From NCBI RefSeq assembly GCF_003675325.1, contig NZ_CP033073.1:5704001-5768000 (forward strand): a stretch of DNA of 64,000 nt. Direction: 5' to 3'. The translations under genes and the position numbers were made by a program. The notes below the pieces were generated by a model. The model searched no databases. It was given only the letters and a program-made list of their open reading frames with translations, and was not told the DNA's origin. This document shows positions 54,532 through 56,187 of the stretch, one piece after another. The first letter of the stretch is position 1. Each line of letters begins with the position of its first letter. The stretch is from Streptomyces dangxiongensis (GTDB taxonomy: Bacteria > Actinomycetota > Actinomycetes > Streptomycetales > Streptomycetaceae).

Positions 54532-54648
54532 GGTCATGAGTGACAGTCATGAGGCCCCGGCCGACTGTCCGGCAACCCTCCGTCCGTGGCGGGGTGCCCC
54601 GGGTGAAGACCAGGCCGTGGACAGCAAGGTCCACGGCAAGCGCGGATC
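54532..54648 (+). ncRNA. SAM-IV riboswitch aptamer
   Basis: The RNA begins GGTCATGAGTG, has GCCCCGGCC, the conserved core CCGGCAACCCTCCGTCC with GGCGGGGTGCCCCGGGTGA, and closes with the complementary AGACC. Then comes the downstream stem (ACCAGGCCGTGGA with TCCACGG) and the pseudoknot segment GGCAAGCGCGG. This matches the known SAM-IV class of actinobacteria nearly element for element. It senses S-adenosylmethionine and usually represses sulfur-metabolism genes. It lies in the leader of the desulfurase-like gene at 54826. Confidence 0.95.
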
Positions 54649-54690
54649 CCTCGCACACTTACCGCAAGTGTGGGACCAGGGATCCTGGTC
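54644..54690 (+). promoter_or_regulatory. Alternative hairpins, likely expression platform of the SAM-IV riboswitch
   Basis: A long hairpin pairs GGATCCCT (54644-54651) with AGGGATCC (54678-54685) and CACACTT (54654-54660) with AAGTGTG (54666-54672). A competing hairpin pairs GACCAGG (54674-54680) with CCTGGTC (54684-54690). Both use bases 54678-54685 and cannot form together. The long one's 5' arm overlaps the aptamer 3' end. A ligand-dependent switch is inferred. Confidence 0.55.
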
Positions 54691-54705
54691 GTCGAGGAGC
54701 CTCCC

Positions 54706-54726
54706 GTGAGCAAGCGAATGCGCTAG
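54706..54726 (+). CDS. Possible six-codon leader peptide (VSKRMR)
   Basis: GTG AGC AAG CGA ATG CGC TAG follows a perfect GAGGAG (54694-54699) with 6 nt spacing, between the riboswitch and the gene. It is too short to judge by coding statistics. A ribosome could initiate here and influence downstream translation. It may also be chance. Confidence 0.35.
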   Translation: MSKRMR

Positions 54727-54825
54727 GGCCGCAGAGCCCCGCCTCCGCATCCCCCTTCACCCCACCGGCGCCAGAGCACGCCCGCTCGCCCGGCGGATTC
54801 CACCTGCCTTCACGGGAGTTCAGCC

Positions 54826-56187
54826 ATGTCCGTCTCCACCGCTGCCGCCGACCGGTCCCTCTGCGCCCCGCTGCCCGTGCTGGGCCGGGATGTCACCGTC
54901 CCGCTCGTCACGGGCGGTGAGGTCGCCTACGCCGCTCTCGACTACGCGGCCAGCGCCCCCGCCCTCCAGCGCGTCTGGGACGACGTCGCGGCCTACGCCC
55001 CGTACTACGGCAGCGTGCACCGCGGCGCCGGCTACCTCTCCCAGCTCTCCACCGACCTGTTCGAGAACGCCCGCGGGACCGTCGCCGGGTTCCTCGGCTG
55101 CCGCCCGGACGACCAGGTCGTCTTCACCCGCTCGACCACCGACTCGCTCAACCTCCTGGCGCGCGCGCTGCCCGCCGGCTGCCAGGTCTTCGTCTTCGAG
55201 ACCGAGCACCACGCCTCCCTGCTGCCCTGGCAGGACGCCCGGGTCACCTACCTCGACGCCCCGCGCACCCCGCAGCAGGCCGTCCGGACCCTGGAGCGGG
55301 CCCTCGCCGAGCGCGACCCCCACGGCCCGGCCCTGGTCTGTGTCACCGGCGCCTCCAACGTCACCGGTGAGCTGTGGCCGGTGCGCGAGCTGGCCGCCGC
55401 CGCGCACGCCCACGGCGCCCGCATCGTCCTGGACGCCGCCCAGCTAGCCCCCCACCACCCGGTGGACCTCGGGGACCTGGACGTCGACTGGGTCGCCTTC
55501 TCCGGCCACAAGCTGTACGCCCCGTTCGGCTCCGGCGTCCTGGCCGGCCGCGCCGACTGGCTCCGGGCGGCCGAGCCGTACCTCGCGGGCGGCGGCGCCA
55601 GCCGCAAGGTCACCCGGCGGCAGGACGGCGGGGTGGACGTGGAGTGGCACGACAGCGCCGCCCGCCACGAGGCCGGCTCCCCGAACGTGATCGGCGCCTA
55701 CTCCATCGCCGCCGCCTGCAAGGCCCTCACCGAGGCCGGCTGGGACACCCTCGTCGCCCGTGAGGAGCACCTGATCCGCACGGTCCGCGAAGGCCTCGCC
55801 GAGGTCCCGGAGGTCAGGATCCTCTCCCTCTTCGGCGACGACGCGCCGCGCGTGGGTGTCCTCTCCTTCGTCGTCGAGGGCTGGAACAGCTCGCACTTCG
55901 CCGCCGCCCTCTCCGCCGAGTACGGCATCGGCGTCCGCGACGGCCTCTTCTGCGCCCACCCCCTGGTCCGCACCCTGCTGGGCACCGACCCGCAGACCCA
56001 GGGGGAGTGCGGCGCCCCGGAGACGGCCCCGGGCGAGAAGTCCCTGAACGCCGTCCGGGTCAGCTTCGGCGCCGGCACCCCCGACGAGCACGTCGAGCGC
56101 TTCGTGACCGCCGTACGGGAACTGGTGCGCGACGGCGCCCGGTGGCAGTACCGCACGGAGGACGGCCGCTGCGTCCCGGCGGTCTGA
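54826..56187 (+). CDS. Class V aminotransferase / SufS-type cysteine desulfurase-like protein
   Basis: A PLP fold-type I enzyme of the aminotransferase V family. K229 in SGHKLYAPFGSG is the Schiff-base lysine; H204-like His in FETEHHASLLPW and the SufS-type C376 in GVRDGLFCAHPL are present, so it may be an active desulfurase or cysteine lyase. Length is 453 aa. The SAM-IV riboswitch in its leader places it in sulfur metabolism. Its exact substrate (cysteine, selenocysteine or a sulfoxide) cannot be told from sequence. Confidence 0.85.
   Translation: MSVSTAAADRSLCAPLPVLGRDVTVPLVTGGEVAYAALDYAASAPALQRVWDDVAAYAPYYGSVHRGAGYLSQLSTDLFENARGTVAGFLGCRPDDQVVFTRSTTDSLNLLARALPAGCQVFVFETEHHASLLPWQDARVTYLDAPRTPQQAVRTLERALAERDPHGPALVCVTGASNVTGELWPVRELAAAAHAHGARIVLDAAQLAPHHPVDLGDLDVDWVAFSGHKLYAPFGSGVLAGRADWLRAAEPYLAGGGASRKVTRRQDGGVDVEWHDSAARHEAGSPNVIGAYSIAAACKALTEAGWDTLVAREEHLIRTVREGLAEVPEVRILSLFGDDAPRVGVLSFVVEGWNSSHFAAALSAEYGIGVRDGLFCAHPLVRTLLGTDPQTQGECGAPETAPGEKSLNAVRVSFGAGTPDEHVERFVTAVRELVRDGARWQYRTEDGRCVPAV

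What the first reader, a model, noticed from the sequence alone, without database searches (positions are those of the whole stretch)
54532..54826. SAM-IV riboswitch in the leader of a cysteine-desulfurase-like gene
The aptamer matches SAM-IV at every conserved position I can compare, but the controlled gene is a class V aminotransferase/SufS-like enzyme, not a methionine-synthesis gene. This suggests the cell adjusts sulfur mobilisation from cysteine (or a related compound) to SAM level. The desulfurase contains the lysine and a cysteine (C376) at the right places.
Basis: partly seen in the sequence, partly recalled or inferred. Interest (0 to 1): 0.72.

Follow-up and report, generated by a model that had tools for sequence, protein, structure and literature searches.

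The report
SAM riboswitch with hexapeptide leader ORF
A real SAM-sensing RNA switch sits before a cysteine-desulfurase-like gene in a Streptomyces-type genome; that pairing is already in print, but the switch seems to act first on a tiny six-codon open reading frame, which probably passes the signal on to the gene.

Summary
The aptamer is real: Rfam SAM-IV, 117.4 bits against a gathering score of 38, whole model, 54532-54648. It is this gene's conserved partner: 64 of 70 orthologues in 197 class genomes have a SAM-IV upstream. The pair is already in print for S. lividans and S. clavuligerus.

metY is the next SAM-IV target (37 of 150 listed sites). All 70 desulfurase genomes have metM or metY, but so do 119 of the other 127. 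The own genome has a SAM-I switch before a metM-metO-like pair. I infer that the enzyme supplies cysteine sulfur for homocysteine.

Its core is in 134 of 159 distinct Streptomycetaceae leaders, with GTG, ATG or TTG starts only. Where the core is absent, the desulfurase itself usually starts at that site (20 of 25). So the switch's direct output is probably this uORF, which then gates a C-rich, Rho-like spacer. Nothing here measures expression, SAM binding or translation.

The parts
54532..54648 (+). SAM-IV riboswitch aptamer
   Evidence: Rfam RF00634, 117.4 bits, full model; same hit in the whole-genome search
54608..54614 (+). P1 3' strand GACCAGG, possible partner of 54684-54690 (anti-P1 element)
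   Evidence: Read from sequence; 106 of 108 leaders have GACCAGG here, and the swap test gives no covariation support (500 of 500 swaps as good)
54644..54685 (+). Expression-platform hairpin (stem A): GGATCCCT (54644-54651) with AGGGATCC (54678-54685)
   Evidence: 98.0% of 399 cells paired, 2 of 8 pairs with changes on both sides, 0 of 500 shuffles reach the percentage paired; swap test 17 of 500
54649..54697 (+). Possible alternative helix (stem C): CCTCG (54649-54653) with CGAGG (54693-54697), which would hide the uORF's Shine-Dalgarno; excludes part of stem A
   Evidence: 88.3% of 247 cells paired but 0 pairs with a compensated change, and a slid control scores higher on covariation; swap test 18 of 500. 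Inferred, weak
54694..54699 (+). Shine-Dalgarno GAGGAG of the mini-ORF
   Evidence: Read from sequence and the leader alignments
54706..54726 (+). Mini-ORF (uORF) GTG AGC AAG CGA ATG CGC TAG, MSKRMR
   Evidence: Pattern with at most 1 mismatch in 35 of 101 family genomes, one per genome, reversed-pattern control 0; core in 134 of 159 distinct leaders
54726..54739 (+). Small hairpin GGGC...GCCC that begins at the uORF stop codon
   Evidence: 47 distinct sequences; native arms pair better than swapped arms, 0 of 300 swaps as good
54740..54807 (+). C-rich, G-poor spacer, candidate Rho-loading region
   Evidence: C/G above 1.5 in 112 of 131 spacers against 6.9% of 2556 background windows; control intergenic regions 0 of 80 and 1 of 55. 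Function inferred
54826..56187 (+). Cysteine-desulfurase-like class V PLP enzyme, 453 aa; K229 and C376 conserved

Best explanation
This is a SAM-IV OFF switch for a cysteine desulfurase that supplies cysteine sulfur for homocysteine, hence methionine and SAM. When SAM is plentiful, SAM binds the aptamer, and the Shine-Dalgarno and start codon just downstream of the aptamer are kept from ribosomes. In most other actinomycete families seen here that start codon belongs to the desulfurase itself. In most Streptomycetaceae, this window included, it belongs to a six-codon uORF (MSKRMR), and the enzyme starts about 100 nt further on. Without uORF translation, the bare C-rich spacer probably lets Rho stop transcription before the gene. 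When SAM is low the uORF is translated and transcription reaches the gene. Shown here by computation: aptamer, conserved pairing with the gene, conserved uORF, one platform hairpin, C-rich spacer. Inferred: SAM binding, direction of control, Rho, the uORF's effect, and the enzyme's role.
For: Aptamer 117.4 bits. SAM-IV within 700 nt upstream, same strand, in 64 of 70 orthologues. No neighbour gene shared widely: besides the enzyme itself no protein cluster is in more than 10 of 61 loci, so the riboswitch-gene pair is the conserved unit. Catalytic Cys and PLP Lys conserved in 60 of 61 rows. Other main SAM-IV target is metY, 37 of 150 listed sites; 70 of 70 desulfurase genomes have metM or metY. 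Own genome: SAM-I (80.7 bits) directly before a ThrC-like protein (TIGR00260 270.4 bits) and a ThiS-family protein (PF02597), the arrangement that passages of PMC12172450 ascribe to the S. albulus metM-metO genes of Hasebe et al.. PMC3293853 puts SCO2146 (cysteine desulfurase) and SCO4293 (threonine synthase) in one five-gene expression class; that these are the orthologues of this gene and of metM is recalled, not tested. uORF; bimodal gene-start distance; loss of uORF plus spacer in S. flaveus L221 puts the enzyme's ATG at the uORF's place. Premature transcripts of the S. clavuligerus homologue, with one of the most extreme CDS/premature ratios: passages of PMC8269248.
Against: The anti-Shine-Dalgarno helix has no compensated pairs and the anti-P1 pairing none, so how SAM closes the start site is not shown. 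A six-codon ORF cannot by itself cover the roughly 100-nt spacer, so protection from Rho needs a stalled ribosome or some other step. No Rho data were seen. metM or metY is also present in 119 of 127 genomes without the desulfurase, so that co-occurrence is weak. 12 of 70 desulfurase genomes lack metM, so a dedicated MetO donor cannot be the only role. 6 of 70 orthologues have no listed SAM-IV.
Confidence: 0.55

Rival explanations
1. Ordinary SAM-IV attenuator. The riboswitch controls the gene by transcription attenuation alone; the conserved 21 nt are an RNA element, not a translated ORF.
For: Premature transcription unit at the S. clavuligerus homologue (passages of PMC8269248). The nucleotides AAGCGAATG are far more conserved than a hexapeptide needs: CGA and ATG are fixed by the search pattern, and codon 3 is AAG in 121 of 134.
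Against: Among 133 leaders whose start could be read, first codons are GTG 109, ATG 15, TTG 9, CTG 0, although the search fixed only the later codons; codon 6 varies mainly at its third base (CGA 84, CGC 27, CGT 18 of 133). The site is the enzyme's own start in 20 of 25 leaders without the core.
Confidence: 0.2
2. Termination-reinitiation: ribosomes that finish the uORF move on and start the enzyme, as reported for the M. tuberculosis ppe2 B12 riboswitch.
For: Precedent in PMC11260477 (abstract and passages): PPE2 expression needs translation of its riboswitch-controlled uORF, mainly by reinitiation.
Against: There stop and start overlap; here the gap between uORF stop and gene start is 44-237 nt, median 101 (133 leaders), and the gene has its own Shine-Dalgarno (54814-54818).
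Confidence: 0.1
3. The enzyme serves Fe-S cluster or thiamine sulfur supply, and SAM control reflects demand of those pathways.
For: SufS is its closest NCBIfam family (249.9 bits); Table 3 of PMC8079986 labels the S. lividans gene 'Cysteine desulfurase (Thiamine metabolism)'.
Against: It is below the sufS cut-off of 475.1 bits; the same genome has a nearer SufS-type paralogue candidate at C2:6013061, 33% identical (its identity as SufS was not tested); SAM-IV shared with metY.
Confidence: 0.15

Closest known systems
SAM-IV riboswitch (Rfam RF00634)
   Same: Full-length match, 117.4 bits against a cut-off of 38; actinobacterial; before a sulfur-metabolism gene
   Different: Nothing in the aptamer. 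In Streptomycetaceae the expression platform leads to a mini-ORF rather than straight to the gene
S. lividans SLIV_26975 and S. clavuligerus CRV15_21540 leaders (PMC8079986, PMC8269248; passages read)
   Same: SAM-IV before a cysteine desulfurase / class V PLP enzyme; premature transcripts in S. clavuligerus
   Different: The passages read do not mention a uORF; SLIV_26975 occurs twice in PMC8079986, both for the riboswitch
M. tuberculosis B12 riboswitches with uORFs at metE and ppe2 (PMC11260477; abstract and passages)
   Same: Riboswitch whose output includes a short translated uORF that alters the downstream gene
   Different: Other ligand and aptamer; ppe2 uORF overlaps its gene, here 44-237 nt lie between; here six codons and conserved across a family
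Actinobacterial amino-acid leader peptides (Cys, Trp, Leu, Ile; PMC1262725, PMC8079986; passages)
   Same: Short leader ORF with a codon for the related amino acid (here Met) near the stop, and no conserved intrinsic terminator; Rho proposed for the Cys leaders in PMC1262725
   Different: A single internal Met codon, not a run; placed behind a riboswitch

Membership tests
SAM-IV riboswitch | Covariance-model score above gathering over the whole model | tested here: met
   117.4 bits against 38, model 1-116
SAM-IV riboswitch | Binds SAM | not testable with these tools
   Needs in-line probing or calorimetry
SAM-IV riboswitch | Conserved placement before the same gene | tested here: met
   64 of 70 orthologues
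Group II (SufS/CsdA-type) cysteine desulfurase fold | Class V PLP domain with catalytic Lys | tested here: met
   PF00266 254.8 bits; K229 in 60 of 61 rows
Group II (SufS/CsdA-type) cysteine desulfurase fold | Catalytic Cys in the ...CA.PL loop | tested here: met
   C376 in 60 of 61 rows; aligned with 4w91 and SufS chains
SufS proper (NCBIfam TIGR01979) | Curated score cut-off 475.1 bits | tested here: not met
   249.9 bits
Cysteine desulfurase | Desulfurase activity on L-cysteine | not testable with these tools
   No assay; the name is by homology
Translated uORF / leader peptide | Shine-Dalgarno and only legal start codons across relatives | tested here: met
   GTG 109, ATG 15, TTG 9, CTG 0 in 133 leaders
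Translated uORF / leader peptide | Ribosome occupancy | not testable with these tools
   No ribosome profiling at hand
Rho-dependent attenuator | C-rich, G-poor RNA between leader and gene | tested here: met
   112 of 131 spacers with C/G above 1.5; controls 6.9% of 2556 windows, 0 of 80, 1 of 55
Rho-dependent attenuator | Termination depends on Rho | not testable with these tools
   Needs bicyclomycin or in vitro transcription

The most novel reading that the evidence does not exclude
A two-input gate on one leader: the SAM-IV aptamer decides whether the hexapeptide uORF is translated, and the internal AUG codon near its stop senses charged methionyl-tRNA, so that a ribosome stalled there for lack of methionine opens the small hairpin at the stop codon and keeps Rho off the C-rich spacer. 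The four far-start leaders without the core carry other mini-ORFs, read by eye as MQMMR (L280) and MMA (L296, L298, L299), which also hold internal Met codons. Against it: for the 134 core leaders the Met codon is part of the search pattern and so is no independent evidence, and one Met codon is a weak sensor.
Probability: 0.2. Interest if true: 0.75.

Novelty: new variant of a known kind. Interest (0 to 1): 0.5.

Why it matters
The desulfurase-like gene is the largest single target among the SAM-IV sites sampled (64 of 150 listed), yet its role is unsettled. If it feeds sulfur to homocysteine it would be the missing sulfur donor of the O-phosphohomoserine route of Streptomyces (MetM/MetO), a route that also feeds the SAM used for antibiotic methylation. 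A riboswitch whose direct output is a conserved six-codon ORF gives a compact, testable system for how uORF translation passes a metabolite signal on to transcription.

Tried and rejected
Rejected: chance match. Rejected as the only role: a dedicated sulfur donor for MetM/MetO, because 12 of 70 desulfurase genomes lack metM. Considered and not used: co-occurrence with metM or metY as strong evidence, since 119 of 127 genomes without the desulfurase also have one. Not supported: anti-P1 pairing by covariation and anti-Shine-Dalgarno helix by compensated changes. A conserved operon partner was sought and not found. AlphaFold model of the enzyme: mean pLDDT 55 from a shallow alignment of 19 near relatives, so not used and no fold search was run.

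Rows left out or uncertain: neighbourhoods of 15 kb or to the contig end were fetched for 60 of 69 orthologues outside the window genome; 9 same-genus ones were seen only as short loci. In the leader set, 4 of 171 loci without a desulfurase match downstream were dropped (L263, L265, L275, L277), and 184 leaders were reduced to 159 distinct ones. One of the 134 core leaders, L163, was matched by the script in the wrong place; the printed sequence shows the uORF. L294 got no start from the script; by eye its gene starts directly. The lists of SAM-IV matches were cut, so counts of sites are of the 150 listed. Distances run to the start of the protein match, not to a start codon. Gene starts were picked by a Shine-Dalgarno rule. 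The 24 other SAM-IV loci scanned for Cys leaders were my choice, not a random draw.

Papers: seen as passages only: PMC8269248, PMC8079986, PMC2864571, PMC3293853, PMC12172450, PMC3766115, PMC1262725, PMC2965389, PMC6742748, PMC8914203, PMC11678152. Abstract, outline and passages: PMC11260477. Not held, so not read: the SAM-IV paper of Weinberg et al. 2008 and Hasebe et al. 2024; what I say of the latter is recalled or taken from passages of PMC12172450. No supplementary files were read. Eight paper searches showed no description of this uORF; the word MSKRMR gave 0 papers. Subscription papers are mostly not in that library.

Full report
1. The observation. Rfam's SAM-IV model matches 54532-54648 (+) from first to last position with 117.4 bits, cut-off 38, and it is the only match in the window at that threshold. 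The whole genome holds one further SAM-IV, 98.8 bits, before an ABC permease, and one SAM-I.

2. The gene. The 453-aa product is a class V PLP enzyme, nearest to SufS in NCBIfam but at about half the required score. It aligns with solved SufS proteins through the catalytic loop. In 61 aligned orthologues the PLP lysine K229 and the loop cysteine C376 are each kept in 60; the odd Cys row reads out of frame. So the desulfurase reading is reasonable but is by homology only. No neighbouring gene is shared widely: the largest other protein cluster is in 10 of 61 loci, all of one family.

3. How general the pair is. In 197 genomes of the class, 70 have an orthologue at E up to 1e-60 and 114 have a SAM-IV. 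In 64 of the 70 a SAM-IV lies within 700 nt upstream on the same strand, among them 16 of 16 of the same genus. The six without are 41-50% identical to the window protein. Of 150 listed SAM-IV sites (the list was cut), 64 are at this gene, 37 at metY (TIGR01326 over its cut-off) and 49 elsewhere; 7 genomes have both. Four metY proteins were checked and pass the metY equivalog cut-off.

4. Sense of the control. metY makes homocysteine with sulfide. In the own genome a SAM-I switch precedes a ThrC-like protein and a 91-aa ThiS-family protein ending in GG. Passages of PMC12172450 say that Hasebe et al. found a homocysteine synthase MetM and a neighbouring sulfur carrier MetO in S. albulus, with a SAM riboswitch before metM. 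metM-like proteins are in 137 of 197 genomes. Of 70 desulfurase genomes, 34 have metM only, 12 metY only, 24 both, none neither; of the 127 others 8 have neither. The difference is small, so I give it little weight. In the same-genus sample all 16 have metM and 6 of 16 metY over its cut-off. PMC3293853 places a cysteine desulfurase SCO2146 and a threonine synthase SCO4293 in one class of five genes; I recall, but did not test, that these are the orthologues. I infer a desulfurase that passes cysteine sulfur to homocysteine by whichever route is present.

5. The uORF. Between aptamer and gene lies GAGGAG-6 nt-GTG AGC AAG CGA ATG CGC TAG. The 21-mer, with at most one mismatch, is in 35 of 101 family genomes, once in each, with 0 for the reversed pattern. 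Leaders of the family and of 80 named loci gave 159 distinct sequences; 134 have the core. The first codon, which the search did not fix, is GTG 109, ATG 15 or TTG 9 in the 133 read by the script. Codon 6 is CGA, CGC or CGT in 129 of 133, and the stop is TAG in 132 of 133. It starts 13-65 nt after the aptamer. The gene starts 44-237 nt after its stop, median 101.

6. What replaces it. Of 25 leaders without the core, 20 have the enzyme's own start 20-54 nt after the aptamer, four have it 235-338 nt away and one was not settled by the script. The four far ones carry, by eye, other mini-ORFs, MQMMR and MMA. S. flaveus (L221) lacks uORF and spacer, and its enzyme starts right behind the same Shine-Dalgarno. 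In the other families the printed leaders show the enzyme starting close to the aptamer. So the site the switch controls is a start codon that is the gene's own in some and the uORF's in others.

7. The platform. In 50 diverse leaders a hairpin just behind the aptamer (GGAYCCCT with AGGGRTCC) is paired in 98.0% of cells, with two pairs changed on both sides and 0 of 500 shuffles as high in percentage paired. A helix that would hide the Shine-Dalgarno is paired in 88.3% but has no compensated change, and a slid control does better on covariation. Swap tests give 17 and 18 of 500 for the two. Pairing of the P1 3' strand with CCTGGTC has no such support. A small hairpin at the uORF stop does covary: 0 of 300 swaps as good, 47 distinct sequences.

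8. The spacer. C/G exceeds 1.5 in 112 of 131 spacers, in 6.9% of 2556 windows of the 64 kb, in 0 of 80 stretches before trpD and 1 of 55 before the downstream gene. This fits Rho loading, which is an inference. Premature transcripts of the S. clavuligerus homologue are in print.

9. Known and new. The pair itself is known. Riboswitch plus uORF is known from B12 switches of M. tuberculosis. I found no description of this uORF in eight searches of open papers. I file the finding as a new variant of a known kind: a SAM-IV switch whose first output is a conserved six-codon ORF. The step from uORF to gene is the weak part of the model.

Noticed in passing
L002, L275, L277, L308, L309, L311, L316, L319, L321, L322: Other SAM-IV sites are followed by an ORF ending in a Cys-leader-like peptide (type RRHxDL...C): 7 of 20 loci flagged, plus L275 and L277 and L002 read by eye, 10 of 24 looked at. 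This suggests a SAM switch in tandem with a cysteine leader before transporters and the like. The family of Cys leaders is recalled.
   Followed up: partly
G224:C1:1096541-1096906, G214:C2:180862-181262, G198:C104:70479-70827, G246:C1:3091128-3091472: Head-to-head pairs of SAM-IV riboswitches on opposite strands, about 125-180 nt apart, in several genomes of genus g92.
   Followed up: no
G000:C2:4361078-4361234 (L035, L065): SAM-I riboswitch directly before a metM-metO-like pair, followed by what look like cold-shock and GroEL genes.
   Followed up: partly
L280 (G210:C1:4836269-4837433): A genome of genus g104 has three SAM-IV sites; one leads to the desulfurase through a mini-ORF MQMMR, another to a Cys-leader-like ORF (L277).
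   Followed up: no
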